Shown here: positions 10,001-56,061 of the stretch, piece after piece | How the letters are laid out: the number at the start of each line of letters is the position of its first letter | Numbering within the stretch: the first letter of the stretch is position 1 | Origin: Carallia brachiata | Taxonomy: Eukaryota > Streptophyta > Magnoliopsida > Malpighiales > Rhizophoraceae | Length of the DNA: 64,000 nt | Assembly: GCA_021464245.1 (NCBI GenBank) | Contig: JADCRB010000035.1 | Location: 652,762 to 716,761, forward strand | Reading direction: 5' to 3' | Notes under the pieces: generated by a model | Databases searched by the model: none | The model's input: the letters and a program-made list of their open reading frames with translations, nothing else | What the model was told of the DNA's origin: nothing | Position numbers and translations under genes: made by a program

Positions 10001-10211
10001 GGTCAGCTCTCCCTTTTTATACCTAAACCGGACCTAACCTAAGACTGGTGACCAGTCCAACCAGTTGAACCGACCGATCCAGTCTGATTTTCATTACACT
10101 GGGGTCGGGGAGAGACCCATCATATTTTTTTGCTTCAATCAAGTGTAAATTTTTGACTTGGAGCAAGGATAGAGACATACATCTGAAAAAAAAGTTCAGT
10201 CAATGTACTAT

Positions 10212-10252
<41 letters not shown>

Positions 10253-11993
10253 TTTTATTTTTATTTTTTTTAAGTAAGTGTAATTTATTTATAATTTTAT
10301 ATTATATAATAAATAGATTTACTTAAATAAAAAAATTAAAAATAATATTTGAATGATATTAAATTATTAGTTAATTTTACTCACTAAAAAAATAAAATTA
10401 ATAAGTACTATATATAAAATAATTTATGTGTGTGTAATAAATTTACTTGAATGTACAACTAGATTTATAATTTTGTAATAAATATTACATAATTTTTCAT
10501 CTCTTTTATTTCATATTCAATCAATTTTATTACATACATTATTATTTTTGATAGAAAAAAATTTAAATTTAAAATAATAAATTAATTTTTAAATTTACGG
10601 GACCACTGTCGAACTCCGGAAATAGAACGGCACACAGTCAACAAAAAATTATTTGATTTGGATTTATTTATTTATTTATTTTGTCTCTTGACCTTTTTCT
10701 CTATCCTATCTGAAACTTAAAAAATGAGGAATTGTTCCATTGGCCATTCCGTGATCAGCTGCAGATTAAGAATCCAATCCCACTCCCCCACGGGGCACGG
10801 TGGCAAAGGCTGCGGCGCTGCAGCCCCCATCTCCGCCATCATCAGTGGCTGGGATTGTTCTTCAAAAGATTCCATTTTTTTTCTTAAAAAAAGGAAATTC
10901 GTGTCTATATAGCTAAAATAAATGCAGAACACAGCCTAAAATTTGCCTCCCCAGTTCCTATGACTAATTGGTCGGACGTTTTTTTTTTACCGAAACAAAC
11001 TTAGTTAAACTCGTCAAGCACTTGGATCCAATCATAAGGTCTGAGATTCTTTTTTTTTTTTTAAATTTGAGCCTACTAAACTATATTGAGATTCGAACTC
11101 GTTTCTAACATGTTTTGAGGGACGACCCTCCTCCTGATTGGTAATAAGGAATCTAGATCTACCAAAGGAAAGTTATAAACACTTACCCGAGCATCAAACA
11201 CGAAGCGATTGATGCCATTCCAACTGTCCAAGTCATAAGCAGTGAAATGCTTGCAACAAGCAGAGGCTTGAAGATGGTCCTCCCCAGTTAGCTTCCCACC
11301 TTCAAAAGAGTCTCCTTGCAGCCCTCTCACAAATGATATTGCATACTTTCCTGTCACCATTGGATCTTCTCCAGGTGTCTCTTGCCCTCTCCCCCACCTT
11401 GGATCCCTGAATATGTTAATGTTTGGCGCCCAAAACGTCATCCCCGTAGCTTGTCCCGAATTGTATATTGCTCTCGCTTCTATTCCAGTGGCCTTCATAA
11501 TATTGTAAAACAGAAGCTCAATCAATCAATTCAAGACAAGCAAACAAACAAACAAAACACTAAAACGTTAATGTTGTCTTACTTGACCAATGCGGTACCA
11601 AAGAACCGAGTCGAAGGAAGCGGCGGAAAGAATGACTTGAGGGAAGCTCGTGGCGGATCGGATGGTGCCATTGAAATGGATGCCTTGGTTCACAACGTCG
11701 ACAAATGCGACGCCGTGCAAGGCCTCCGACCACCACTCGTAGGCGGGGATGCCGAGCCTGGGAATCCCAGAGGATGCGTCAACGAGTTGGGATATTTTTT
11801 CCTCCAAGGTTAGCCTGGAGACAAGGTCCTGGACTCTTTGGTTTATGGGTAATGAGGTTTCGCAGAAAAGGTACGATCTTGTTGATGGGTCAGACGAATC
11901 ACAGGCGAATGGAGGCCGAGTTGACTCAACTACGAGATGCGCTGATGTTAAAATGTGGACGAGAGCTATAGCAAAGAGGCTTAGAGGTTTCAT
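7052..11993 (-). CDS. Probable beta-D-xylosidase, GH3, intact copy (BXL-like)
   Basis: Six exons on the minus strand in transcript order: 11993-11583, 11492-11187, 9023-8854, 8776-8679, 8517-7753, 7626-7052. They total 2325 bp and encode 774 residues, the usual length for plant BXL proteins. A signal peptide (about residues 1-24) predicts secretion to the apoplast. The GH3 N-domain holds [14 protein letters not shown] and the SDCD motif, whose first Asp (about residue 301) is the expected nucleophile. The second GH3 domain and a C-terminal fibronectin-III-like domain follow. Known family role: release of xylose, and in some members arabinose, from xylan and arabinoxylan in the cell wall. It is the downstream partner of a tandem pair. 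Intron 2 is 2163 bp, against 171 bp in the paralogue, because of repeat insertions. Every exon is open and every junction is GT-AG. Confidence 0.95.
9651..10098. mobile_element. MITE-like element with ACCGGTT-rich ends, inside the xylosidase intron 2
   Basis: An AT-rich core of about 200 bp is bounded by segments packed with ACCGGTT and AACCGG words in opposite orientation at the two ends (for example GGACCGGTTATTGAACC on the left, GGTCCGACCGGTTCGA and AGTTGAACCGACCGATCC on the right). This arrangement is that of a non-autonomous DNA element. Exact borders and target duplication were not resolved. Confidence 0.45.
10204..10246. repeat. TA microsatellite and AT-rich tract in intron 2
   Basis: A run of about 14 TA dinucleotides (about 10218-10246) is followed by several hundred bases of A and T-rich sequence. 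It adds to the expansion of the host intron. Confidence 0.7.
10717..10875 (-). other. Coding-like GC-rich island inside the xylosidase intron 2
   Basis: A GC-rich patch in otherwise AT-rich intron DNA contains a 52-codon minus-strand frame starting [17 protein letters not shown] and containing [16 protein letters not shown]. Base composition and the acidic, Met-rich start look like the beginning of a real protein, but I do not recognise a family and see no following exon. It could be a captured or duplicated gene fragment, a nested gene start, or chance. Confidence 0.25.
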
Positions 11994-13647
11994 GTCGTGA
12001 TGAGCAGACTTCCAGTATAATAACGGTGTTCATGTAAGCACTAAGCACGCAAACGTACCAATGATATAGAGGAAGAGAAAGGACCTCTGATACCTACCCA
12101 AACTTGGGTTGATAGCAACTTGATTTTTACAAAAACGATAGACAGACGAGCGTAGGGCAGACGGGGAAGGGAGAGAGAAGAGAGACAGTGGTAAAACTCT
12201 ATGTGAGTTTCGTCGGATATTTTTTTTTAAAGAAAAATATTTTGTGTATAATGATTAAGATGAGTATGTAACTAATATAAAATTAAAAAATTTTATAAAT
12301 TATGTACAATAGACTTAATTTTATGTGTAATATACATTCTGTGTATATTAACTTAATATGTAATAAATAAAAAATTAATATATTACAAATTAAAATAAAA
12401 AAAATAATGAAATGACCCGTTAGCTTCCGCGGCAACAACGTCACCACTATGCATTAAAACTCTTGGTTCTATTATTATTATATATATATATATATATATT
12501 TTTTTTTTTTTGAGAATAGATAGCTATTTAATATCTATCATTTCTCAATTCTTATTGATTTATATTTTATCACTTATTACAGCTGGACAAGTTCTTTCTC
12601 TGCGGACTAGTCGACAAAACCCTTTTCTCATGAAAATTTTGACTACAGTCTCCCATATTAATCTTTGGTATTGTGAAGTGTAAACACACGGGGGATAAGG
12701 CAATAATTTATCTTTATTGGTTTTAGAAAAGTCAAATGCCTGAATTTAAAATCATTGCTCTCCATTCCACTGGCGACCCAATAACGACAATTGAGCCTAT
12801 GCCATGTGTTTTGCTTGGTGACCTTTATTGGCAAGTTTAGACCCCTCTAGTTCTCTTTTGCCGAATTTCCAATCAACTTTAATTTTAAAAATCGGACTGA
12901 CATGATACTTCAACCAATAAACCAACAGATCGAAGTTTAAATTGGTCTAATTCTCTTACCAAATCAAACCAAAAAAAGTGATCAGAAAAAACCGTTCAAT
13001 CCTATTAACCTAGATAATCAAACTTGGTTGGTTAAATCATAAAATAGACCGAATTAGTGCTAAAAATTTTATTTCTTATTTTTTTAAAAAACGATTGTAT
13101 ATATTGTAACATTTTATCAAGAATATTTATATATTGTACTTGAAGTCTTGAACGTAATTTTAATGGCATTTTTTTATTTTTATATAATATAAAAATATTA
13201 ATTATTTTTAAAAAATATGAATTAACCTACTAGTTTAAGTGCGGAATTAATAGTCAGACCATTAAACCATAAAAATGAACGTTAAATTGGATCAAAGTCC
13301 AGTCCGGTCTGGGTTTTAAAACCATGCAATTCGTACTACCATCATGACAAAATTTGAGATCTTCAGGTTTTGTATGAAGGAAAAAGAGCGATCAAAGGTG
13401 GAAATCGAACGAGGGATAGCTTCGAATGAGTGGAGCTTAAATTCACCAATTTGGACCCATCCAAATATATTTGATGGAGCCTGTCAACCTGGGTCTTAAT
13501 AACCAGTAAACGGCAAAATAGAAATGACAAATTACATACAGTGAACAGCCATACAGCAGGGAGTAAAAGGTCACATATGAACCTGGATATGGCTCATTAA
13601 GCCAGAAACATTGGCTTTTATTCTTAAGAATTATGCAATCCTCCCAA
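11994..13647. other. Intergenic region between the two xylosidase copies
   Basis: This 1.65-kb spacer holds the promoter and 5' UTR of the intact copy (right of 11993 on the minus strand), a TA microsatellite at about 12478-12500, and an inverted-repeat element at 12884-13322. No extra gene is visible. Confidence 0.5.
12884..13322. mobile_element. MITE-like element with TTTTAAAA-GGACTG inverted ends
   Basis: The left end reads TTTTAAAAATCGGACTGAC and the right end, read on the minus strand, begins TTTTAAAACCCAGACCGGAC, so the termini are imperfect inverted repeats around an AT-rich core. It may be a diverged relative of the ACCGGTT-rich element in the nearby intron. Confidence 0.4.
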
Positions 13648-16600
13648 TTAAACTAGAATAGAAATTGCGTACTGGTCACCTCCTGCAGCCAAGAAATGTG
13701 TTCCTTCTTCTATTATCATCAGGCCATCTTCGTTGGCCCTACTAAAGTGCTCACAAGGCCTCACTTCGAATTCAATTTCAGCTCTCTCCCCTGCACTTAG
13801 TATCACACTTTGAAATCCAATCAACTGTTTCTTAGGCCTACCATTCCCATGCCTTGCCTGCCTTCCAAATAACAATACTGGATGCTTACCTGCCATCTCC
13901 CCGTGGTTCTCAACCCCAACTCTTACCACAAACTTGCTTTCCTCGCAGAATTCTGATCCCAACTCCGAGACTAATGTATAATGGATCGAATCTGATTTGT
14001 CAATTAAATGCGTTGCTGAGGACTGATTTAAGTAAAGTTTGTTTGTTTTGACATAAGTAAGTTCATAAGAATACTTGGAGTAGCTCAGACCATGACCAAA
14101 GTCAAAAACTGTTTGGGCTTTGTAGAATCTGTATGTGCGACCAGGGTACCCTGAAGGTGATTCAGGTCGCAGCCTCATGTCTGTCATTGGTATTTTGACG
14201 AATTCTTGTGGGTACCAAGTCATTGGTAATCTTCCTCCTGCATGGCATCTATGTTTCATTCATCATTCAACAACATAAATTATTTTCTTATTACATATTG
14301 TTTACCTGGATTATGGTCACCAAAGATGATTTCTGGCAAGTGCAATCCCACCAGCTTCACCAGGATAACCAGCCCACAAGATGCTTCCGATATTCTTGTC
14401 TTCCTTGGCAAAAGACACATCAATCGGACCTCCAGAAAGAAGCACCAGAACAACTGGATTCTTTGCTTCTTTTGCAACACTAGTGATGAGTTCTTCCTGC
14501 CCCTTAGGCAGCACCAAGTCCAGGCGATCAAGCTCTTCCCTCTCTAGAGTTTGGTCCAATCCCATAATCAATACTACATAATCCACCTCCTTTGCTATGT
14601 CCACTGCATTTTGAACTGAAGGCGAAATGCACTGAACTGTGTCACAGCCAGGGTGAACTTTAATATCTTTAACGTAGTTCAGCAATGCTTGCAATGGTGT
14701 TATTGATTTGCATGGAGGACCTGCATAGTTCCCAAGAAGGGTTTGTGCAGAATTAGCATTTGGACCAATTACAGCAAGGGACATGGTTTTTGATTGTTGA
14801 AGTGGGAGGAGTCTTGCAGAGTTCTTTAAGAGGACTATGCCATTACGGGCAGCTTCAAGGGCTAGTATCTGGTGCTCTGCAGAGCAGACTTGCTCAGGAC
14901 CAATTTTTCCCAAAGGCTGTTCCACTGGATTTCCATCAAAAAGGCCTAACCTCATCCTTACAGAGAAAAGGTTATGAAGGGCTCGGTCAATTTCAGCTTC
15001 TGGAAGTTTTCGCTGCTCTACAGCTGCTTTGGTGTGCTTTTGTAAGTATGTTCCGCAATTGAGATCCATGCCTGCAGATATTCACCAAAGAATGTTCACT
15101 TGCGTGGTAAAATAATGCTGCTCAGTTTCATGAACTTTTTTAGCATGCAATATCTCAAACAAAGAATTATTATGCTCGAATTCTATATGGAGTGCGAATA
15201 TGACTGAAACCATTATACTGAGCATTGTTCAAAAACCATACACCATACCGCTATGAGTCTAGATATTATGGGAAATGGTTAGATGTTTGCAACTCACTTT
15301 CGTTATTCACAAAAAAGGCTGTTTCTGCTGCAAAATGTACCTATGAGGCTATGAGTTCCAGAGTAGTGTTACCAATACACCAAGACTCGCCCTTCTACAT
15401 TAATTGGATGATAATTATATTTAATATACCAGTTGCAGAATGGAATCAGTACCATATTATAATCTTTATAGTAATGACCTTAGAGTAGACTTATTCATGA
15501 TTGATCTAGTAACCATAAGCACTCAATTGGACATAGAATTCACCGTCCTTTTAATGGAAAAATGGCGGAAAGACAACTAAAGATTCCAAACAGCTAAAAA
15601 ATATAATGAGCAATGGTCGACTTGAACGGCCACCATAATTGGAGTGATGGACCAATTTGCCTCAATTGGATGGCTGGACCCCTATACAGCTCATAGCGTC
15701 CAAAATTCAAAACATGAGAAGCAGAAAACAAGAATTAACATAAAAAAAAAAAAAAAAGCTATAGCCCTAACGATAATCACAATCACACGTCTGCTTTATG
15801 ACAAAGACAAAAAAAAAAAAGGTCAAGAAATAGGCCCCATACCAGCCTTAAGGGCATCTGCGACAGCATCTTCTGGTGACTTTGCATATCCTTGATCATC
15901 ATACATAATAGAGACCGCATCACAGTCCGATGTTATGTACCTGATTTTGTGTTACAGAATTATTATAAACCAAATTATAATTGCCGACAGTAAAAATGAT
16001 TGCACTTTTATTTAGTACCCATGGAAGCCCCAGTTGCCCCTAGCAGTTTTGGATAGGAGATTGAAATCTGCGCAGCTAGGAACTCCGTTAACTCTATTGT
16101 AGGCACACATGATCCCGCTGGCTTTACCTTGTTGAATGCAACTCTGGAATGGTGGCTGATATGTGTCTGCCAAATCCTGAGCAGTCACCTGATTTCAAAT
16201 TCAGACAATAGTTGAATGTCATTACACAAAATTGCCATAACGGACATCAAATCAAATTCACTGGGGAAAAAATAAAGACCCCAAAATCAAAAGCAAAGTA
16301 ACAAGAATTATTGAACGAAATCCGGAAGAAGGGCAACTAGCTAGGCTAAAAAAACTTACGCGAGCATCAAAAACAAAGCGGTTAACGCCCTTCCAGTTGT
16401 CCAAATCATAAGCAGTAAAATGCTTACAACAAGCTGAAGCTTGAAGATGCCCTCGAAGCTTCCCTCCTTCAAAGGAATCCCCTTGAACCCCTCTCACATA
16501 TGAAACAGCATATTTGCTGGTCACCAATGGATCCTCACCAGGTGTCTCTTGCCCTCTCCCCCATCTTGGGTCCCTAAATATGTTGATATTCGGTGCCCAG

Positions 16601-17190
16601 AACGTCATCCCTGCCGCTTGCCCTGCATTGTAAACTGCTCTAGCTTCTGTCCCAATCGCCTTCAACCAACATTCACAGTATCCAAAACAACAGTACTAAA
16701 ATAAGATTCCCTTGTAATTTGCTAACTAATAGAAAGTGTAAAGGTCTAAACTTTGGATAAGTAAAAGTACTAATCAAGTGTGCTCAGTACCTGACCAATG
16801 CGATACCATTGGTAAGCATCAAAAGAAGCGGCGGTAAGAATGACCTGAGGGAAGCTGGTGGCAGCCTGAATGGGGCCACCGAAATGAATGCCGGGGCCCA
16901 CATTGGCAACACCGTGAAGCGCCTCGGACCACCATTGGTAAGCTGGGATGCCGAGGCGCGGGATCGCCGGGGCTGAGTTAACGAGCTGGGAAACCTTCTC
17001 ATCCAATGTGAGCCTGGAGACGAGATCGCGGGCTCTCTGGGCTATGGGCAGCGTGTTTTGCAGAAAAGGTAAGTGCTTGTTGATGGGGCTGATGGGTCAC
17101 AAGAGAATGGAGGCTCGGTTGAGTCAACTCGGACCAGTAGCAGAGTGAGTACTAGGATGGTGGTAGTACGGGCAGCAAGGATCTACTCAT
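13648..17190 (-). pseudogene. Second beta-D-xylosidase (GH3), tandem paralogue disrupted by three single-base indels
   Basis: It has the same six-exon plan as the intact neighbour: 17190-16791, 16659-16360, 16188-16019, 15940-15843, 15071-14306, 14237-13648. Exons 3 and 4 match the partner's lengths exactly (170 and 98 bp), and all splice sites are GT-AG. Three places break the frame. Exon 1 loses one base between the ATG at 17190 and about 17155, giving a stop at 17152-17154. Exon 1 loses another near 17051-17056, just before the [11 protein letters not shown] segment, giving a stop at 17042-17044. Exon 5 is 766 bp instead of 765, with an extra base near 14335, giving a stop at 14317-14319. 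With these allowed for, the length would again be 774 codons. The SDCD nucleophile exon and the fibronectin-III-like end are intact. Either this is a young pseudogene or the assembly has indel errors; the clean neighbour favours the first. Confidence 0.8.
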
Positions 17191-33900: not shown

Positions 33901-35731
33901 TTGCATTGTTTTATCATGTTTATATTCTTGATTGTCATCTGTTATTGCTCTAGTCTGTGGAACATCATTATCGTTGCTGTTCTTCCTTTTCATGCCTGTT
34001 AGATGTGTCCATATTAGAAAATTTTGTAATTACATTATTTGCCATTGGTGGCTCTCAATATAGTTCACAGCCATCCAAAGAAACAAAGAACTAATGCATC
34101 ACTAAGTTGATATTTAAAAGTAACCCAGTTTCTGTTCATGTTACTTAAGAACTTGCTGTTTATTGTACAATGAAAATAACATGATGGTGTAGTCACTTAG
34201 GCCTTCAACATTTCATAAAGATGTGTAATGCGAAACCTTAAGGTTCTAGTCTAATCTTTGATTCCATTTATGTTGCTTGGAAAAGTTGGTCATAACTGCA
34301 TGAATCAAGTCCTGGGAACTTTTGCTATCATGCAGTTTATAGACATTCGCTGTTCTAAGACAAGTTGATGGTTATATTTGTCAGACTGCCAATTTTTGTT
34401 TTCATGCATTATGCAGCTGAGGAATCTGCTGTGGGCAACCTCAAAACACGATGTCTACCTTGTGCAAAATTACTCTGTGAGGCATTGGTCATCATTGTTG
34501 AGAAGAGGCAAAGAAGTAGTCAATGTGGCTAAAACTATTCAACCAACCTTGGTATGTGCTTTTAGGTCCAAGCTTGCCCAAGGCATTCATAGTTGATGTT
34601 GTCAAGACACTCACTTCCTTAATTGTAACAAATTCTTTTTCCCAAAACAGAAGCGACCAGGATTGTTGTCAGAGTCACTGTCCGGGGTACAAATAAGCAC
34701 TATGGCAGTTAAAGAAAACTTATTGGTGGCAGGCGGTTTTCAAGGAGAGCTTATTTGCAAGGTACAAAAATGGTCGCACACTCACTGCCTCCTTTATAAC
34801 GCAAAGCTTTTGATTCCTTTCCTCATCTTGGGTAGCTTATTTCGTTTGGCCAGTATTTGAAGCAGCCTGGAGTTGCATTTTGTGCAAAAATTACTACAGA
34901 TGAGAATTCCATTACCAATGCAGTGGATATATACCACAACCAAAAGTAAGAAACTTGTACTTGAATTAAATTCGGGATTGCTCATTCGCTTTTGAGAAGG
35001 ACGCTGAACCATCCTCTTGCAGTGGCTTGCTGAGAATTATGACTTCCAACAATGATGCTCAAGTTAGAGTTTTTGATGCTGGAACTTTTGCTTGCTTAAA
35101 TCATTTCTCCTTTGACTGGTCTGTGAATGTGAGTGGCCTTTGGCACAATCATATTTCCTGGGAGTTGTTTATGTACTTCTTCACCAAGTTTCTGACATGC
35201 TAATGTTTCTATTTTAATCGTGCTTCTCAGAACACTTCTGTTAGCCCGGATGGTAAACTGGTAGCGGTCCTTGGCGACAGTTCTGAGTGCTTGGTCGCAG
35301 ATGCCAGTACCGGGAAAATAACTTATAGCCTCAAGGGGCATTCGGACTATTCGTTTGCATCAGCTTGGCACCCTGACGGGCAAATTTTGGCCACTGGCAA
35401 CCAGGACACCACATGCAGGCTGTGGGACATAAGGAATCTATCCAATTCCCTGGCTGTATTGAAAGGAAATATTGGCGCCATAAGGTCTCTGAAGTTCACC
35501 TCTGATGGGCGGTTTCTGGCTATGGCTGAGCCTGCAGACTTTGTTCACATCTTTGATACAGAAACTGGCTATGTCAAGTGCCAGGAGATCGATCTATTCG
35601 GGGAGATTGCTGGCATATCGTTCAGCCCCGATACGGAGGCTCTCTTTGTTGGGGTTTCTGACCGCACTTATGGTAGCCTGTTAGAGTTCAATAGGAAGCA
35701 TCACAACTCATATCTGGACTCGATATTCTGA
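30911..35731 (+). CDS. WD40-repeat protein, C2A9.03-like (transducin family)
   Basis: Eight coding exons: 30911-31105, 31286-31453, 32092-32178, 34417-34551, 34651-34761, 34854-34945, 35023-35128, 35231-35731. They sum to 1395 bp, 464 residues plus stop, and all introns are GT-AG. The N-terminus is strongly acidic (EYVDDDVDEYDYNYFDYFAD). The middle has IPWERLNFTRDEYRETRL, typical of a conserved plant and fungal WD family annotated after fission yeast C2A9.03. The C-terminal half shows WD repeats, for example the blade ending CRLWDIRNL after HPDGQILATGNQDTTC, and VHIFDTETG. The family is a scaffold without a settled biochemical role; nuclear or cytosolic location is inference. The ATG chosen is the first after a probable 5' UTR intron. 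Intron 3 is 2.2 kb. Confidence 0.9.
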
Positions 35732-42290: not shown

Positions 42291-44600
42291 GCTCTACTTT
42301 TTAAAAATAAAATGTAAATATATTATCTTAAAAGTTAATGCAAACATCCCTTTAATCACTAAAGGTCCGTTTAGGATTTAAAAATCATGGATTTTAACAT
42401 TTTCATAGATTTAACATATATAAGATCTAGAATAAAAATAACCTTATACAAATCATAAAATTTCAAATATATCCTTCAATTCAATAAAGATAATATTTTA
42501 AATTTACATTTATGGAAGTCTTCCTGGAGAGATTTGTACCAAATCATCTCCCGAAGTGAATGAACTAAACTCAAAAAATTCAAGTAATATCTCTCGTCAA
42601 AAATTTTTAGCACCAAAAGTTCTTACATCAATATTGGTGAATTATATTCCGCCAAAAAATTAGGTTCCCCTGTTATTCCATATGAAAACGTATTTTACAT
42701 GCTTAAAATGTGTTTAAAGAGTTCTTTAGAAATACTCCAGTAATCAATAACTTATATGTATATTAGAAGTTTTGAATTTTAATTTTAATAAGAGAGACAT
42801 AAATTTATAAAAATAAAAAAATTACTTCTAAATTTATAAAAAAATTTATATTTTATTTTTTATTATAAAAAATATATATGTTATTGTAAAAAATATGTGT
42901 ATTATTACAATATAACTACATGAAATAACAAAATATGTATGTACATATAACAGTGCTCATTAATTAATTAATGGAACATATAGTTGCGAGGCTTGCGAGA
43001 CTCTTACGTATGCTTCTTTTACGGTACTTTCATGGCTTGTTTTTGTGTGGAGGATTGAAGAGTCAAATTAACAGAGTGGCGATGATGAATCATGCCACGC
43101 CTCACCATACGTCTGCTGGAATTGACCTGAAAAGTGCAACGCTCAAAACAAACTTTGCTTCATTTGGTTTGGAAAAAGAAGGCCAAAGGTCGTGAAAACG
43201 ATCAATCACGGCCGTATGTTGGTTTCGTGGCGTGCCCCCTTTACTTCTGTGTGTCAAATTTGTTCTTTATTGGCCAAGCCACAGCAAATTAGACCTTTGG
43301 TCTTTGCTGTAAGTTTCTTTTTTCCAATTTCATGCACGCCATTGATACTCTAACGCATTTCAAAGCCTTACGTCAGTTCACACAATTGTTTGAATGAATG
43401 CTTGCCCGTTTTGCACCATATAATTGTCGTTTGTTTTATGCCGAAACACTTTGTTTCGCTAATTGTATGGTTACAACATATGATTTGCAATATCAAAATC
43501 GGTTACTTTTGTCATTAATTCAATAAAATTCTACCATAAATCTCACAGGAATTTCAAAATTATCAATTTGGCCTTGATACTTTTAGTCATATGTAATTCA
43601 ACCATTAAATTGGTAAAGTATAACGGCACATAAATAATAAAAATTTAGTCATAAACTCTCTTTATCTTTATAAATAGACAAGTTGGATAGACACCGAATT
43701 TATGAATTCATATATTTAGATAATAATAGAAAAAAGCATGCGTGAGAGAGGTTTTGGTTTTTTATCATTTGTAAGAATTGAATATGATAATATGACAAAT
43801 CAAAAGAGATTAAATAAAAAATGACACCTAGAAAAAAAAAAAAAATGGGGCACAATCCGGAGCACGTATTTTCGGGTATGGGGATCCGCCGACACAACCC
43901 AAGTAAGCAGCTCTTCTTAGTCAACTAACTTAACTGTCACAGCATTCCCTGAAGCTGGGGTTGGGTTTAGTTCACGTCGGTGGTTACCGCTCCGCCAATA
44001 AACATTCCTCCTTGTCCATAGCACGTGATATACACGGACAATCTCAGACCGTCGAAACAACACTTGAGATGAGATCCTACAGTCCAAAATCTAGTCAACG
44101 ATGTTGCCACGAGTAGGTCACATTACAGCTAATGGCTGCTCTTGCATCTTGCACGTGTCGAGCACGTGGCATGTTCTTCCGTAACGGTTACGTCTTCCTT
44201 GTTCTCAAATTATTATGCGTATTCTGCTCGGTTACCGAACTACGGTCAACTGCAATTAACCGCGGTTTCTTTTTTGTTTTTTGTAACCACGGTCAAGTTA
44301 ATAGGTCGTGCGTGCTGTTTATTTTATTTTTATCCTTTTAAATAGTCTGGGAAGCGAAATGGGTTTTTTTATTTTATTTGAAAATCCCATAAAAAATATA
44401 GGGAAAAAAAATGATTACAAAAGGGGAATTATAATTAATTACATGTTCTAGTTCGCCACAATAGTTTTTATGCCAATACATGAAAACATAAATTATCATT
44501 TGAAAGTCAGCTAATTTATGCATATTAGATTAGTATTAGAATAGTGATATATCGCATGAAGACTTTCTTTTTAATATTTTATGAATTGATATTTTTATTG
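42291..44600. other. Intergenic DNA left of the LTR element
   Basis: AT-rich up to about 42.95 kb, then mixed composition. The 43.9-44.3 kb part has promoter-like words, including a palindromic CACGTG near 44027, but no gene follows before the retrotransposon. Open frames at 42971 and 44132 have no recognisable product. The LTR element may have separated a former promoter from its gene; that is speculation. Confidence 0.35.
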
Positions 44601-44605
44601 ATGTG
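44601..44605. repeat. Target-site duplication ATGTG (left)
   Basis: The five bases just outside the left LTR are identical to those just outside the right LTR (49656-49660), as expected for an integrase-mediated insertion. Confidence 0.9.
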
Positions 44606-45536
44606 TGTGAAGCTGTAAATTTCGAGCCTGTAACAGTTAGACTCAAAAAATAACAAAAATTGTAAAAATGAAAAGAAATTTATGTGGGGTCGATCTCCGT
44701 AGATCCTCCGATTAATGCTCCTGTGTAATTTAGTCAAGGGCCGTGAAGGCTTAATCTTGACCGAGAGATAGTGAATTTCCACAGCGTGAACTTGAACTGT
44801 AGGAAATGGATCCCACTGAGGGCCGAGACTTGATCTCAAGTGGATTAGTTGAACTCCGGTGAGGGCCGTAGGAGGCTTGATCCCACTCGGACTGTATGGA
44901 CTTCGGTGAGGGCCGTAGGAGGCTTGATCCCACTCGGACTGATTGGACTCCGGTGAGGGCCGTAGGAGGCTTGATCCCACTCGGATTGGATGGACTTCGA
45001 TGAGGGCCGTAGGAGGCTTGATCCCACTCGAATTGATTGGACTCCGGTGAGGGCCGTAGGAGGCTTGATCCCACTCGGATATTTAATATCTTGGGTTTTT
45101 GATCTAGCGGATCCAACTTAGTGGCAGCTAGAGAGCATACACCCAAAATATTTAGAGAGAGAAAGGAAGAGATGCAAAGCTTTAGAAGATGAATGATTTG
45201 CTTTGCTTGGGATGGATTGAAAGGCTTTGAGGGGATCCCTATTTATAGGGTTTTGGGGGAGGATGGATGCCAAAATTGTATGACTTGGATCATACATGGC
45301 AAGGGCCCTCTTTGGTGGTTGAATTTTGACATTTTGCAATCAAATGGAAATTAAAATTTCCATATGATTCATCATGAGTAGGATCCTACAAGGCAAGGAC
45401 CCTCTTTGGTGGTTGAATTTTGACATTTTGCATGGTCATCAACCAAATGGAAATCATCATTTTCATATGCATGCACTTGTTGCTTTCATGTAGGGCATGC
45501 ATTGATTTTTTTTTTTTTTTTTTTTTGGTGTTTACA
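44606..45536 (-). repeat. Left LTR (transcriptional 3' LTR), 931 bp
   Basis: Nearly identical to the right LTR; outside the internal tandem repeats and the poly-T run I noticed one substitution (AATAAC against AATAAT near 44651/48731). It holds five tandem units of about 47 bp with the core GAGGGCCGTAGGAGGCTTGAT (about 44860-45080). A TATA box, TATAAATA, reads on the minus strand at 45240-45247. Confidence 0.9.
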
Positions 45537-45539
45537 AAT

Positions 45540-45550
45540 GCCCCCACTTC
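45540..45550 (-). promoter_or_regulatory. Polypurine tract of the LTR element
   Basis: GAAGTGGGGGC on the minus strand, followed by ATT and then the TGTAAACA start of the LTR. Position and composition fit the plus-strand primer of a gypsy-type element, and it fixes the orientation as minus. Confidence 0.65.
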
Positions 45551-46379
45551 AAGGGTCGGTAAGGAAGAATTTTACCGTAATGATCCGAACCGAGTCTTGA
45601 AGTCCAGTTTGAAACTTGAGATGTCTTAATGAACGTTGAATGTTGGAGTCTTCTATCTTTGACCATGCCTGCTGTTGTTGGATCACAATAGGAATCCGAT
45701 ACGATCTTGAGAAGGTTAGCAGCCCAGCCAATATAAAAATTGAAGTCTTGGCTCCAGGTGCGTTCGAGCTTCCATAGCCCGCAAAGGATTTTTTATATCT
45801 CTTAAAGTTCCAGAGCTCTGGTGAGGATGATCCAGTAGGCAAAGAACTTGAACCTCCCCAAGAGGAAGGCCCAGGACCTTGGAACTTCAAGACCGGCTCA
45901 CAGAGAGACTGACTGTAGTGATGATTTCCAAGTCTGCTTCGACGTAAGGAGAGTAGTTGGAACTTCCCTGTACGTCGCTGCATCCAAAGAAAGATTAGGA
46001 TAATTGCAGCTTCTCATCCCTCTGTGGTAGATGTGAACTAAGGAGAGTAGTTGGAACTCCATGACACCGATGGCGTTGGAGACTGAGTTTCGAGGATCCC
46101 TCGAAGAAGACTACTCCCTCTTTTCTTAGCTCGTGCGCCTCCAACTTCTTGATCGAAGAACTTCCTGAGACAAGTGCAGAGACTAGCCATTTTTTTTTTT
46201 GAGAAAGAAGAGCTGAGGGGTGAATATTACTCGGGCATGCAGGATATATATACAAATAATAAAGAGTTTTTTTTTTTTTTTTTTTTGAAAAGTCAAAAAA
46301 AAGGTATGCAGAATCGGGTAGGGCCATCCACGTCCCTTTCCTGCATAAGAGACAAAAGAGGCAGCGGCTGACGCGTGTC
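45551..46379 (-). other. Element interior between WOX 3' end and PPT, function unknown
   Basis: About 830 bases without a recognisable domain. Minus-strand frames of 132 and 144 codons exist, but their composition is not convincing. The phrase GGAGAGTAGTTGGAACT occurs twice (near 45948 and 46037), pointing to an internal duplication. It could be 3' UTR of the captured gene or of the element. Confidence 0.35.
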
Positions 46380-46490
46380 ACGAAAGTCGTCACCGTGTGT
46401 GGCAGAAGTCGTTGCCGTGTGCTGCGGAAGTCGTTGCCGCGTGCTGCAGAAGTCGTTGCAGAAGTCGTTGCAGAAGTCGTTGCACCTTAT
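46380..46490. repeat. Short tandem repeat GAAGTCGTTGC after the WOX stop
   Basis: Units of 12 bp and related 18-24 bp units (GTCGTTGCAGAA, GTCGTTGCCGTGTGCTGCGGAA) lie directly downstream of the WOX stop codon on the minus strand. They would be in the 3' UTR of any WOX transcript. Confidence 0.7.
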
Positions 46491-46503
46491 CTTGTCGGCC
46501 GTC

Positions 46504-47127
46504 CTAGCGGGGCCCGAGGCGCAGCTCCAAGTCAAGCTCGACCTCGTCTGGTGGGCCGATGATGTTGACGTCGACGTCGACGTCGCTTTCCAGCTGGTTG
46601 ATGCTGTCGGAATATTCTGGAAAGAGAGGCAAAGTTTCACCGGAATAACTCCTTTCTGCTAGAAAAATTCCTCCTAGACTTAAGTATCTAGGAGGGATGA
46701 ACCCTTGGCTGACTCCGTAAGACCACCAGGACCAGCGTGCATGCTCCCATGGGCTACGGCTTTGATGAACATACCGTGGAGAGACTATTACGGTGGAAGA
46801 ACTCGGACCTGCTTCATTTGACGGCGAAGTTGTACTGGTGGGATCTACCATCGGAACAGCAGACTGTTCTTTGGAAAAATCAGCTCTCAGTGCTGGTTTC
46901 TTCCTGCTTCTCCGATTCTGGAACCAATAAAACACATTTTTTCCTTCGATTGCCCCGAGTGGGCGCAATCGTGAGACAAGTTGGTAAATCTGAGATGCAT
47001 TAGGTATAATATCTCCATTGTTGTGGAAGACTTCCTCTAGAATTTGCAGTTGCGCCATAGTTGGTTGCCACCTTGTGCGGGGTGACCTTTCTTCTTCCTT
47101 GTCTTGAGGTTCTGCAACTGGTTCCAT
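46504..47127 (-). CDS. WUSCHEL-related homeobox (WOX) protein captured in an LTR retrotransposon
   Basis: A single uninterrupted 207-codon ORF. Residues about 17-80 form a WOX-type homeodomain (RTRWQPTMAQLQILEEVF, then LGAIEGKNVFYWFQNRRSR). The helix-3 residues W68, F69, Q70, N71 and R75 are kept. A canonical WUS box, TLPLFP, lies at 165-170, an acidic run at 180-187, and a C-terminal EAR repressor motif (Leu at 198, 200, 202 and 204). WUS-clade proteins use these parts to control stem cells and recruit TOPLESS corepressors in the nucleus. Odd features: NRRSR in helix 3 resembles the WOX9/11 clade rather than the NHKAR of the WUS clade; there is no intron, while WUS-clade genes normally have one inside the homeodomain, suggesting capture through mRNA. 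It lies in the element's transcriptional sense. Clade assignment is uncertain; homology to WOX is not. Confidence 0.9.
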   Translation of the reverse strand: MEPVAEPQDKEEERSPRTRWQPTMAQLQILEEVFHNNGDIIPNASQIYQLVSRLRPLGAIEGKNVFYWFQNRRSRKKPALRADFSKEQSAVPMVDPTSTTSPSNEAGPSSSTVIVSPRYVHQSRSPWEHARWSWWSYGVSQGFIPPRYLSLGGIFLAERSYSGETLPLFPEYSDSINQLESDVDVDVNIIGPPDEVELDLELRLGPR

Positions 47128-47212
47128 CTTTCTTGTGGCAGAGGAGCAAAGATCTTGGTATGTGGTGAAGATCGGTTGAGACTGATACTGAGTTTCAAAC
47201 TCAAACCCTCCG

Positions 47213-47455
47213 TCGCTTTTATATTTTTGGGCCGTTCACAGTTTATACTCATGCGGGCCAGGAGTTTGGTGAACTGTAGTGTCGCCTTTTATACTCGTAC
47301 GAGGCAGGAGTGTGTTGCTGAACTGTTCGCCTTTTATACTCGTGCGAGGCATGAGTGTTGAACTGTGATGTCGCCTTTTATACTCGTGCGAGGCAGGAGT
47401 GTTGAACTGTGATGTCGCCTTTTATACTCGTGCGAGGCAGGAGTGTTGAACTGTT
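47213..47455 (-). promoter_or_regulatory. Tandem array of TATA-containing 44-45 bp units upstream of the WOX ORF
   Basis: On the minus strand, GAGTATAAAAGGCGA recurs with TATAAAAGG cores at about 47285-47294, 47330-47339, 47374-47383 and 47418-47427, spaced 44-45 bp. Each unit also carries CCTGCCTCGCACGAG (with small changes). A degenerate unit lies at about 47236, and a further TATAAAAG at 47216-47226 is only about 90 bases before the ATG. The layout looks like a duplicated core promoter, though activity is unproven. Confidence 0.5.
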
Positions 47456-47775
47456 GAGCTGTTGAGCTGGCGAGCTGGTGAGCTGTTAAGCTGATGAGTT
47501 GTTAAGCTGATGAGTTGTTAAGCTGCTTGGCTACTGAGCTGTTGAGCTGTTGAGCTGCTGAGCTGTTGAGCTGTTTGGCTGTTGAGCTGCTTGGCTGCTG
47601 AGCTGCTGAGCTGGTGAGCTGCTGAGCTGTTGAGCTGCTTGGCTGTTGAGCTGTTGAGCTGCTGAGCTGTTGAGCTGCTGAGCTGTTGAGTTGGTGAGCT
47701 GCTGAGCTGTTGAGTTGGTGAGCTGCTGAGCTGTTGAGCTGGTGAGCTGTTTGGTGAGCTGTTGAGCTGTTGACT
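47454..47775. repeat. Minisatellite of GAGCTGTT/GAGCTGCT units
   Basis: About 320 bases made of short units such as GAGCTGTTGAGCTGCT, with occasional GAGCTGGT, GAGTTGGT and TTGGCT variants. It lies in the leader of the LTR element, beyond the TATA array. It has no stable open frame and is probably noncoding. Confidence 0.8.
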
Positions 47776-48250
47776 TGAGTTTTGATTCAGGGTCTAAGCT
47801 TTGCCCCCGAATCTGGATTTAGGCTATGAGTTGGAACTTGGATTTGGGTTTTGAGCCCGAGTTTAGATTTGGTGAATTTGGGCTTTGGGCTAGGGTTTGA
47901 GTTTAGGCTTTTTGGGCCTGGATTTGAATTTGGGCTTTAGGCCCGAGTTTGAATTTGGATTTGGATTTTGAACTAGAATTTGGGTTCGGACTTGGATTTT
48001 GCCCCCGAATTTGGATTTGTTGGGTTTTGAATCGGGGTTTGAGATCTACCCCCGAATCTAGATTTGGATTTTGTGGAAGGGTTCTGAACTTGCACATAAG
48101 TTTCAGACATTTTTTTCTTTTCTTCTTTTTTTTGGCTTTTTTTTTTTGCTTTTTTTTTTTGCACTTTTTTTTTGCTTTTTTTTGTTTTTTTTTTTATTTC
48201 TTTATTTATTTCTCTTTTTTTGTCTTTTTTTGTTTTTTTTTTTTTACACA
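47776..48250. repeat. Imperfect TTTGGATTTGG repeats and poly-T tract in the element leader
   Basis: 47790-48085 is built of drifting GATTTGGGTTTGAGCCCGAG-like words. 48108-48246 is almost pure T with scattered C and G. Predicted proteins here are low-complexity Phe or Lys/Gln runs and are not believable. Confidence 0.7.
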
Positions 48251-48662
48251 GTAAATTTTAGAAGTTTACCATTTGACCGAACCAGGTCGGGATGCGTTGA
48301 CAGCATGCAAGCGTAATTGACGTAGGCTTCTGAACCAGGTATAGCCCGCCACAGTTGGAAGTGAGCTTGTCGTAGAGTCGGTGCTTGTGTCCCTCTATTG
48401 GTCCAGTTGGATGAGAACTGTGTCCATGCACGAGTTTGCGAACCTACGTACTCAAGTAGGATGATTAATGCAGGCGATTGAGCTGTCGTCCTTTTATTGG
48501 TGGCGATAGTCTTGTTCATCTTTAGTGCCACCGATGCGCCGGATTCCTGCCCTCTAGAGTTGTGTTGGTGTTGGCCATTTCACGGCCCATAGGCCATGAA
48601 ATGGCCGTTGTGCCACCAACTTTTTTTTTTTTTCTAAGGAGCAAAAGATGGGAGGTAGAGAT
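48251..48662 (-). other. Element leader next to the PBS
   Basis: A GC-balanced stretch after the primer binding site, with a 95-codon minus-strand frame (48244-48531) that I do not recognise. It may contain packaging or dimerisation signals, as leaders of non-autonomous LTR elements do; this is inference. CCATTTCATGGCC and GGCCGTGAAATGGCC form a GC-rich hairpin near 48576-48606. Confidence 0.35.
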
Positions 48663-48680
48663 GTCCCACCGAGCGTGCCA
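48663..48680 (-). promoter_or_regulatory. Primer binding site of the LTR element
   Basis: TGGCACGCTCGGTGGGAC on the minus strand, five bases after the LTR end. It starts with the TGG that pairs with the CCA of a tRNA. I cannot name the primer tRNA with confidence. Confidence 0.6.
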
Positions 48681-48685
48681 AAAAT

Positions 48686-49655
48686 TGTGAAGCTGTAAAT
48701 TTCGAGCCTGTAACAGTTAGACTCAAAAAATAATAAAAATTGTAAAAATGAAAAGAAATTTATGTGGGGTCGATCTCCGTAGATCCTCCGATTAATGCTC
48801 CTGTGTAATTTAGTCAAGGGCCGTGAAGGCTTAATCTTGACCGAGAGATAGTGAATTTCCACAGCGTGAACTTGAACTGTAGGAAATGGATCCCACTGAG
48901 GGCCGAGACTTGATCTCAAGTGGATTAGTTGAACTCCGGTGAGGGCCGTAGGAGGCTTGATCCCACTCGGACTGTATGGACTTCGGTGAGGGCCGTAGGA
49001 GGCTTGATCCCACTCGGACTATGGACTTCGGTGAGGGCCGTAGGAGCTTGATCCCACTCGGACTGGATGGACTTCGGTGAGGGCCGTAGGAGGCTTGATC
49101 CCACTCGACTGGATGGACTTCGGTGAGGGCCGTAGGAGGCTTGATCCCACTCGAATTGATTGGACTCCGGTGAGGGCCGTAGGAGGCTTGATCCCACTCG
49201 GATATTTAATATCTTGGGTTTTTGATCTAGCGGATCCAACTTAGTGGCAGCTAGAGAGCATACACCCAAAATATTTAGAGAGAGAAAGGAAGAGATGCAA
49301 AGCTTTAGAAGATGAATGATTTGCTTTGCTTGGGATGGATTGAAAGGCTTTGAGGGGATCCCTATTTATAGGGTTTTGGGGGAGGATGGATGCCAAAATT
49401 GTATGACTTGGATCATACATGGCAAGGGCCCTCTTTGGTGGTTGAATTTTGACATTTTGCAATCAAATGGAAATTAAAATTTCCATATGATTCATCATGA
49501 GTAGGATCCTACAAGGCAAGGACCCTCTTTGGTGGTTGAATTTTGACATTTTGCATGGTCATCAACCAAATGGAAATCATCATTTTCATATGCATGCACT
49601 TGTTGCTTTCATGTAGGGCATGCATTGATTTTTTTTTTTTTTTTTGGTGTTTACA
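48686..49655 (-). repeat. Right LTR (transcriptional 5' LTR), 970 bp
   Basis: Same sequence as the left LTR but with six, not five, of the roughly 47-bp GAGGGCCGTAGGAGG units (about 48940-49200) and a shorter poly-T run. Two units carry small deletions. Open frames predicted across it are shadows of these repeats. Confidence 0.9.
49363..49370 (-). promoter_or_regulatory. TATA box in the 5' LTR of the WOX-carrying element
   Basis: CCCTATAAATAGGG on the minus strand is a strong plant TATA box. Transcription would begin about 30 bases further (near 49330) and run through the repeat units, the primer binding site and the leader toward the WOX ORF. The same motif lies at 45240-45247 in the other LTR. 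Confidence 0.6.
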
Positions 49656-49660
49656 ATGTG
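49656..49660. repeat. Target-site duplication ATGTG (right)
   Basis: Perfect match to 44601-44605, on the other side of the LTR element. Confidence 0.9.
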
Positions 49661-50123
49661 GTGATAAATTTTTAATATTTTTATTTTAATTTTTTAAAAT
49701 TAAATTTAATGTTATCCTCAATTTTAAGCCATTAATTATTATTTATAAAATTTTGTAAATAAACTTTCAAAAAGTTTATCATTTAGTATTATAACCATAA
49801 GTCACAAAAAAAAAAAACAGGAGATTCGAAACAACAATTTTAATCACCAAACTCTAATGAGTGGGGAGAGAGAGGCAGACTTAAAATATAATATTTGGTT
49901 TATTTGTTTAGAAATACTTTGTGGAAGTTGGTTAAGTGTTATCAAAATAATATAAATTATTAAATAATTAAATTTTAAATTATTAAAATATAAATAAATT
50001 ATTAAATATAATCAAATAAATTACATAACTATTTGTATCTTCTTAGTTCATACTCAAATAATAGTAGTCTTATTTATTGGGGATGAGAAAAGAGATTAAA
50101 GAATGATTTAGGCCAGACTTTAA

Positions 50124-54954: not shown

Positions 54955-56061
54955 ATGGCAGCTGCAATGGATTTCTACAATAGCAGACCACCTCCTTCTG
55001 AGTCAGAATCTTTTGGAGGTTGTGAGTTAATGGAAGCACTTGAACCTTTTATGAAAAGTGCTTCCTCATCATCATCATTATCATTATCATCTCCTTCTGA
55101 ATGCTCTTCTGCTCTTTCTTATTCTTCATTTTCTGCTTCTTGCAATTACCTTCCCACCCTTCCCCTACAGCTGCATCAGCAGCAGCCGTCCTTTCTTTGC
55201 CCAGATGGTTGCTCCACCTCGACGACCCACCCGTTTTCAACCGGGTTTTCGGTCAACGACTTGTCGGGTCTTCAGCAGCCGAGTCCGATCGGGCTTAACA
55301 ACCTTAACAATGTCCAGATCCACGAGATCCAGACCCAGATGCAGATGCAAAGCCAAAATAATTTTGCTTCGATCAACCACTACTATCTTCCTCCTCCCAC
55401 TTACCAACTGGGTCCGAACCCTGTCCCCGTGAAGCAAGCGGGTCAGCCGCCTAAGCCTATGAAGCTATACAGAGGAGTAAGGCAGCGGCATTGGGGCAAG
55501 TGGGTGGCCGAGATCCGGCTCCCCAGGAACCGGACAAGGCTTTGGCTTGGCACTTTTGACACGGCGGAGGAGGCGGCCTTGGCCTACGACCAGGCTGCTT
55601 ACAAGCTCCGAGGAGACTTTGCTAGGCTCAACTTCCCTAATCTCCGGCACCAGGGGTCCCACGTTGAGGGCCAGTTCGGCGAGTACAAGCCTCTCCATTC
55701 CTCCGTGGACGCCAAGCTGCAAGCCATTTGTCAAAGCTTAGCGGATTCACAGCAAGGAGGGAAAGCCGAGAAGCGATCGAACTCGTCGGGCAGAAAGAAA
55801 AAAGCCCAGACGATGGAGGCCCCCGCGCCGGAGCAGCCGCAGCAGCAGCAGCAGGAGGTCGTCACGGACAAGTGTTGTAAGGTGGAGACGCCGTCTCCGG
55901 CTCTCACCGAGAGCGAGGAATCAGCGAGATCGTCGTCGCCGCCTCTGTCGGAACTGACGTTCCCGGATTACGAGGAGGCGCCACTGGACATCGATTCGGA
56001 GAATTTCTCGTTGCACAAGTATCCCTCTTATGAGATCGATTGGGCTTCTATTTTGTCTTAA
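54955..56061 (+). CDS. AP2/ERF transcription factor, DREB A-6 type (RAP2.4/WIND1-like)
   Basis: A single-exon ORF of 368 codons. The N-terminus ([24 protein letters not shown]) is a hallmark of the RAP2.4 group. A Ser-rich and Gln-rich region follows. One AP2 domain spans residues 171-228, with [19 protein letters not shown] and [16 protein letters not shown]; the Val and Leu at the DREB-diagnostic positions 14 and 19 fit subgroup A-6. After it comes the conserved [18 protein letters not shown] motif, a basic patch, poly-Gln, and an acidic tail ending EIDWASIL that probably activates transcription. Known relatives respond to drought, light, ethylene and wounding; WIND1 promotes dedifferentiation after wounding. 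The protein is nuclear by inference. The start ATG is the first in frame, close to the leader end. A strong TATA box and stress-type boxes lie upstream. GC-rich codon use contrasts with its flanks. Confidence 0.93.

What the first reader, a model, noticed from the sequence alone, without database searches (positions are those of the whole stretch)
44606..49655. A WOX (WUSCHEL-type) homeobox gene riding inside a young, non-autonomous LTR retrotransposon
Seen directly: two almost identical LTRs, a perfect ATGTG target duplication, PBS and PPT on the minus strand, no gag/pol, and an intact 207-codon ORF with homeodomain, WUS box and EAR motif in the element's sense orientation. Known: retroelements such as maize Bs1 can carry host gene pieces, and WUS-clade factors control stem cells. 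Inference: the element moves a full-length morphogenetic repressor around the genome; copies inserted near meristem or ovule genes could alter development. I do not know of this combination being described, but cannot search.
Basis: partly seen in the sequence, partly recalled or inferred. Interest (0 to 1): 0.95.

Follow-up and report, generated by a model that had tools for sequence, protein, structure and literature searches.

The report
Jumping gene carrying a stem-cell regulator
A recently inserted plant retrotransposon without recognisable replication genes of its own carries an intact but strongly diverged relative of WUSCHEL, the master switch of plant stem cells; if other copies do the same, a mobile element would be making a stem-cell-type regulator.

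Summary
Observation confirmed. Window 44606-49655 (minus) is a young LTR element: perfect ATGTG target duplication, LTRs of 931 and 970 bp with one substitution outside a tandem array, PBS-like and PPT-like sequences, no gag/pol domain found. Inside, in sense, is an uninterrupted 207-codon ORF with a WUSCHEL-type homeodomain, an exact TLPLFP WUS box and a C-terminal LxLxL EAR-like motif.

New here: (1) It is no fresh copy of an ordinary WUS: its homeodomain matches the WUS consensus at 33 of 65 sites, against 55-64 for 16 Malpighiales (host order) WUS proteins. (2) It diverged under coding constraint: 27 of 37 invariant homeodomain columns and the base-contact residues are kept; 1 of 400 neutral simulations stayed stop-free. 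(3) Five TATAAAA boxes, four in a 44-bp tandem array, lie 96-299 bp before the ATG: probably an own promoter. (4) WUS-site enrichment in the LTR was tested and not found.

Best reading: an accessory (or captured) WUS-clade gene of a non-autonomous LTR element. My searches found no earlier description. Copy number, expression and parent gene are untested because the host genome could not be searched.

The parts
44601..44605 (.). Target-site duplication ATGTG, left copy
44606..45536 (-). 3' LTR in element sense (931 bp), with a 47-bp tandem array at 44853-45079
45537..45550 (-). PPT-like GAAGTGGGGGCATT next to the 3' LTR
46384..46483 (-). 22-bp tandem repeat just beyond the ORF's stop
46504..47127 (-). 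Intact 207-codon WUS-clade homeobox ORF (stop included); strong start context AAGATGG
46885..47079 (-). Homeodomain, residues 17-81
46618..46635 (-). WUS box TLPLFP, residues 165-170
46516..46536 (-). EAR-like motif LDLELRL, residues 198-204
47217..47223 (-). TATAAAA box 96 bp before the ATG
47242..47454 (-). 44-bp tandem array (4.8 copies) holding four TATAAAA boxes (47426, 47382, 47338, 47293) and one TATAAAC; candidate own promoter of the ORF
47444..47773 (-). 8-bp tandem array, about 42 copies
48663..48680 (-). PBS-like TGGCACGCTCGGTGGGAC, tRNA not identified
   Evidence: and the sequence
48686..49655 (-). 5' LTR in element sense (970 bp); TATAAAT at 49364-49370
49656..49660 (.). Target-site duplication ATGTG, right copy

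Best explanation
A young, probably non-autonomous LTR retrotransposon of a Malpighiales plant carries a WUSCHEL-clade homeobox gene as an accessory (additional) gene. Shown: the unit, ORF included, was inserted as one piece recently; the ORF is open, lacks introns, and keeps a WUS-type homeodomain with the base-contact residues plus both co-repressor motifs. Inferred: the gene entered the element as cDNA long before this insertion and stayed under coding constraint there; it is transcribed in sense from its own tandem TATA promoter, while the LTR promoter makes the genomic RNA that Gag and Pol of a partner element mobilise in trans. Most likely action (inferred): a small nuclear protein that binds TGAA/TAAT-type homeodomain sites, recruits TOPLESS through WUS box and EAR motif, and represses host genes, so biasing cells towards a meristem or germline-precursor state in which the element is expressed and inherited.
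For: TSD, LTRs, PBS-like and PPT-like sequences frame the ORF in one orientation. [quoted passage not shown] Homeodomain 33/65 to the WUS consensus against 55-64 in 16 Malpighiales WUS proteins; 27 of 37 invariant columns kept, hypergeometric 4e-5, WUS box 6 of 6; 1 of 400 neutral runs stop-free. Residues matching WUS R38, Q89, N90, R94 all kept. Homeodomain modelled with high confidence and matched best by WUS-HD/TGAA. Five TATAAAA boxes 96-299 bp upstream, 0 of 1000 shuffles. No introns, against two in poplar and Medicago WUS.
Against: One locus only; no second copy in the window, and the host genome was unreachable. 10 of 37 invariant homeodomain residues are lost and 29 of 32 changed residues occur at that site in none of 120 WUS proteins, so function may be altered or lost. 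The constraint test weakens to 0.012 at looser thresholds, and it cannot tell constraint in the element from constraint in a host paralogue before capture. WUS sites are not enriched in LTR or interior. No AATAAA-like signal within 700 nt of the stop. CpG level shows no long decay. Four of the five TATA boxes are copies of one amplified site.
Confidence: 0.55

Rival explanations
1. One-off transduction: shortly before this insertion the element captured the cDNA of an already diverged host WUS-like paralogue. The ORF is intact only because it is young, and it has no role in the element.
For: Review: transduced genes usually sit in one or few copies and in sense (PMC7264820), as here. One copy seen. 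The constraint shown could have acted in the host before capture. CpG level not depleted.
Against: It needs a host WUS paralogue with a homeodomain at 33/65; the 120 listed relatives (of 420) hold nothing near it and the 16 Malpighiales WUS proteins compared lie at 55-64. The tandem TATA array directly before the ORF suggests a longer history in this setting (inference).
Confidence: 0.28
2. Decaying passenger: the ORF is an old captured WUS fragment that happens to be open still, makes no working protein, and rides along.
For: 10 of 37 invariant homeodomain residues lost, 29 of 32 changes unseen in 120 WUS proteins; no enrichment of WUS sites; no evidence of expression available.
Against: 1 of 400 neutral runs stayed stop-free at this divergence even without indels; changes avoid invariant columns; WUS box 6 of 6 and base contacts kept.
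Confidence: 0.12
3. Not a mobile unit: a host WUS-like gene framed by chance by two LTRs, or an assembly artefact.
For: Only one assembly locus could be read.
Against: Perfect TSD at the outer ends, PBS-like and PPT-like sequences at the proper inner ends in the ORF's orientation, and LTRs that differ slightly in array length and substitutions.
Confidence: 0.04

Closest known systems
Phalaenopsis Ty3/gypsy elements with an AlkB-type 2-ODD ORF (PMC9289625; passages read)
   Same: A plant LTR element that acquired and kept an additional ORF with a complete host-type functional domain
   Different: Those are about 25 kb and carry gag-pol; the domain is an RNA demethylase, retention over several copies is documented and activity was shown in vitro. 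Here: 5 kb, no gag/pol found, a homeodomain repressor-type protein, one copy, no assay
Accessory-ORF elements such as maize Grande gene23 and Retand (PMC7264820 parts 1-2 of 3 read; PMC11963269 passages)
   Same: Additional ORF for a nuclear or DNA-binding type of protein, tandem arrays in the element, own promoter reported for gene23
   Different: Those ORFs are antisense with TRP28 or other domains next to gag-pol; here the ORF is sense, of clear WUS origin, with no TRP28 and no pol found
Maize Bs1 and LTR-captured genes of rice and sorghum (review; PMC3726574 passages)
   Same: Host gene sequence inside an LTR element, in sense
   Different: Bs1 has pieces of several genes; the rice/sorghum paper's main text names no homeobox, WUSCHEL or WOX gene (its supplements were not seen)
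WUSCHEL and its orthologues
   Same: Homeodomain with the WUS loop length, base-contact residues, WUS box, EAR-like end
   Different: 207 aa, homeodomain 33/65 to consensus, arginine at the S36 site, no introns, borne by a mobile element
Human DUX4 (PMC3836709; start of abstract in the listing only)
   Same: Intronless homeodomain gene tied to retroelements (analogy of action only)
   Different: DUX4 is a host retrogene that binds retroelements; here the element carries the gene, and its LTR is not enriched in WUS sites

Membership tests
LTR retrotransposon | Direct LTRs with TG..CA ends and a target-site duplication | tested here: met
LTR retrotransposon | PBS complementary to a tRNA 3' end, and PPT | tested here: inconclusive
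   PPT-like tract and a TGG-starting PBS-like sequence at the right places; no tRNA was matched
Non-autonomous (LARD-like) LTR element | No gag/pol coding capacity | tested here: met
   No such Pfam domain in 13 of the 38 other ORFs of 50 aa or more overlapping the interior; the 25 not scanned are mostly short
Non-autonomous (LARD-like) LTR element | A partner element that supplies Gag and Pol | not tested
   The genome search unanswered in 15 tries
Accessory-ORF (aORF) LTR retrotransposon | Additional ORF in the interior | tested here: met
Accessory-ORF (aORF) LTR retrotransposon | ORF kept in all or most copies of the family | not tested
   Host genome unreachable (same 15 calls); no other copy in the window
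WUS-clade WOX protein | WOX-type homeodomain | tested here: met
WUS-clade WOX protein | WUS box TLPLFP | tested here: met
WUS orthologue rather than another WUS-clade WOX | WUS-type loop length, EAR-like end, nearest to WUS in a tree with WOX1-7 | tested here: inconclusive
   Loop residue as in WUS and one more than STENOFOLIA, EAR-like end, listed best hits are WUS-type; no tree with other WOX groups was made and the WUS-only tree leaves it unplaced
Retand lineage (Ty3/gypsy) | Antisense TRP28 (PF04195) ORF between pol and 3' LTR | tested here: not met
   No TRP28 match in the ORFs scanned; no RT found to place the element

The most novel reading that the evidence does not exclude
A retrotransposon family has long owned a WUSCHEL-derived homeodomain repressor as a regular, selected gene. 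Made from the element's own tandem-TATA promoter, the protein reads a shifted set of sites (more TAAT-type, through the arginine at the WUS S36 position) and pushes plant cells towards stem-cell fate, so that the element multiplies in the lineage that makes the next generation: a plant counterpart of a captured oncogene turned accessory gene.
Probability: 0.2. Interest if true: 0.95.

Novelty: new variant of a known kind. Interest (0 to 1): 0.74.

Why it matters
Plant LTR elements with captured or additional genes are known, but in the searches made here none carries a developmental master regulator. Confirmed in several copies, this would be a mobile element that encodes a stem-cell-type transcription factor with its co-repressor motifs and perhaps its own promoter. 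It would make an open question, what accessory genes of plant retrotransposons do, directly testable with established WUS assays (DNA binding, TOPLESS binding, wus complementation). It would also warn that surveys of WOX genes may miss or miscount element-borne ones.

Tried and rejected
Self-regulation through WUS sites: TGAATGAA, TTAATGG, TTAAT[CG][CG], TCACGTGA, TAAT and TGAA are not enriched in LTR or interior against 500 dinucleotide shuffles; one TGAATGAT lies about 50 nt beyond the LTR TATA box (P 0.19). Not evidence.

Captured poly(A) tail: an A20 run lies about 217 nt beyond the stop, but the element has nine sense A-runs of 10 or more, so it proves nothing.

Methylation decay: CpG o/e of the ORF 0.78, LTRs 0.57 and 0.59, rest of the interior 0.82 and 0.62, ERF coding region 0.81, four other host exons 0.40-0.58: uninformative.

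Tree: terminal branch 7.47, position unsupported.

Other copies: none for the ORF or the LTR unit in viral contigs, none for alignment A1 in viral contigs or prokaryote genomes. A plant element is not expected there, so this is weak. Rfam at gathering scores: no match at 44500-49800.

Retand lineage: tandem arrays fit, TRP28 not found, no RT to place it.

Literature: ten searches in all. Seven bear on a WUS, WOX or homeobox gene in an LTR element and three served other points (31, 33, 62). None of the listings or passages seen describes one. Listings were capped (for example 25 of 58, 25 of 32, 15 of 166). Papers on WOX genes and transposons opened for passages (PMC5501002, PMC6482515, PMC7109043, PMC12085086) tell of elements near WOX genes or of other matters, not of a WOX gene inside one, in what I saw.
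Full report
What is there. The finding's coordinates are right. On the minus strand, window 44606-49655 is a 5,050-bp LTR element: ATGTG at 44601-44605 and 49656-49660, ends TG..CA, a 5' LTR of 970 bp (48686-49655) and a 3' LTR of 931 bp (44606-45536). The LTR alignment has 920 identical and 6 different sites. Five of the six, a 44-bp gap and a 1-bp gap fall in a 47-bp tandem array (4.8 against 5.8 copies); outside it there is one substitution in about 721 sites and a 4-bp homopolymer gap. With 7e-9 to 1.3e-8 substitutions per site and year (rates recalled, from no call) that is about 50-100 thousand years, upper 95% bound about 0.3-0.55 million. A PBS-like sequence beginning TGG lies 5 nt inside the 5' LTR and a PPT-like tract abuts the 3' LTR; I could not name the tRNA. 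Thirty-nine stop-to-stop ORFs of 50 aa or more overlap the interior. I gave 14 to Pfam, including the homeodomain ORF; the 13 others gave one subthreshold match (PRMT5, E 0.018, plus strand) and no gag, protease, RT, RNase H or integrase. No second copy lies in the window.

The ORF. At 46504-47127(-) 207 codons stand open from ATG to stop, within an open frame of 243 codons. Pfam gives a homeodomain (1.7e-12). Among solved structures the WUSCHEL homeodomain is best (3.2e-18), ahead of STENOFOLIA (5e-16), against which the ORF has one extra residue, as WUS has. Of 420 protein relatives the best 120 were listed; their names, where informative, are mostly WUSCHEL or WUSCHEL-like, one is misnamed as an oxygenase, and the best hit has 85 bits and 32% identity over 85% of the ORF. 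So none of the listed relatives is close. In an alignment of 26 proteins the ORF starts MEP like many WUS proteins and keeps homeodomain, TLPLFP and a C-terminal LDLELRL in WUS order. AlphaFold with that alignment gives pLDDT 90-94 over residues 21-70, 76 over 71-80 and mostly below 60 outside. The best Foldseek match is the WUS homeodomain on TGAA DNA (E 6.8e-5, TM 0.93 over the target).

Old as a sequence, young as an insertion. Over 65 homeodomain sites the ORF matches the WUS consensus at 33. Sixteen WUS proteins of Malpighiales that I picked by hand from the hits match at 55-64, 24 others at 55-65 (their orders are recalled). The host is most likely a Malpighiales plant: its RAP2.4-like protein (54958-56061) is closest to Rhizophora mucronata (73%) and next to Vernicia fordii (66%) among named species, both Malpighiales (best 120 of 956 listed). 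So the ORF is not a fresh copy of an ordinary WUS gene. Yet it did not drift freely. Of 37 homeodomain columns invariant in the 120 listed WUS-type proteins it keeps 27 (hypergeometric 4e-5; 6e-4, 0.010 and 0.012 with looser thresholds), and the WUS box 6 of 6. A model ORF left to drift to the same homeodomain divergence stayed free of stops in 1 of 400 runs; indels were not simulated. Against this, 10 of 37 invariant residues are lost, and 29 of the 32 changed residues occur at that site in none of the 120. The test does not say whether the constraint acted inside the element or in a host paralogue before capture.

Binding residues. In the WUS structure paper (PMC7203112, passages read) bases are read by R38, Q89, N90 and R94. 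With an ungapped alignment (offset 19) these are R19, Q70, N71 and R75 of the ORF, all kept, as are the matches of K82, N83 and Y86. At the S36 site the ORF has arginine. In that paper S36R raised affinity for the TAAT probe six-fold and left the TGAA band shift much as it was. A range shifted towards TAAT is a fair prediction (inference; other changes in helix 3 could alter it). In the Medicago WUS protein HDL, loss of the WUS box or of the EAR-like motif alone hardly reduced TOPLESS binding and loss of both abolished it (PMC6305195, passages), so a repressor is the likely biochemical role (inference).

Expression. Poplar and Medicago WUS have three exons and two introns (PMC4637887, one legend); the ORF has none, which suits entry as cDNA (inference). 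Just upstream lies a 44-bp tandem array (47242-47454) in which four units hold TATAAAA, and a fifth TATAAAA lies 96 bp before the ATG. Five are seen in 420 bp against 0.03 expected, 0 of 1000 shuffles, though four are copies of one amplified site. The LTR has TATAAAT at position 286, but 12 ATGs stand between its presumed start and the ORF. I therefore favour an own promoter, as told for gene23 of maize Grande in the review PMC7264820 (parts 1 and 2 of 3 read). No AATAAA-like signal lies within 700 nt of the stop.

What did not support the story. LTR and interior are not enriched in WUS sites. CpG level gives no sign of long decay. The tree cannot place the ORF (branch 7.47). The host genome could not be searched, so copy number, LTR family, partner element and parent gene are unknown. 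Viral and prokaryote collections gave no relative, as expected for a plant element.

What is known. Reviews describe additional ORFs in plant LTR elements either as transduced genes in one or few copies or as conserved accessory genes, mostly of unknown origin. An AlkB-type demethylase in orchid Gypsy elements is the nearest case of a whole host-type domain kept by an element (passages). [quoted passage not shown] Searches for WUSCHEL, WOX or homeobox genes in LTR elements showed none in the capped listings. The library holds open-licence papers only, so a report elsewhere is possible. I class this as a new variant of a known kind.

Verdict. Most likely it is an accessory WUS-clade gene of a non-autonomous LTR element (0.55); a one-off capture of a diverged paralogue is the main rival (0.28), then a decaying passenger (0.12) and a chance or artefactual frame (0.04). 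The host genome decides.

Noticed in passing
7052-12029 (-) and 13648-16695 (-): Two similar sets of exons in the same orientation that look like tandem GH3 beta-xylosidase-type genes (Fn3-like E 7.6e-11 in 7052-7648; the similarity of the second set was judged by eye).
   Followed up: no
44853-45079 and 48933-49202: The 47-bp tandem array inside the LTRs differs by about one unit between the two LTRs (4.8 against 5.8 copies) and holds five of the six LTR substitutions, a possible trace of unit turnover or template slippage.
   Followed up: partly
47444-47773: 8-bp tandem array of about 42 copies (TGTTGAGC on plus) directly upstream of the TATA array; function unknown.
   Followed up: no
54958-56061 (+): Uninterrupted RAP2.4-like AP2/ERF reading frame about 5.3 kb from the element, used to place the host in Malpighiales.
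   Followed up: partly
35204-35731 (+): WD40-repeat exon, best Pfam match by E-value the THOC3 beta-propeller model, below its cut-off.
   Followed up: no
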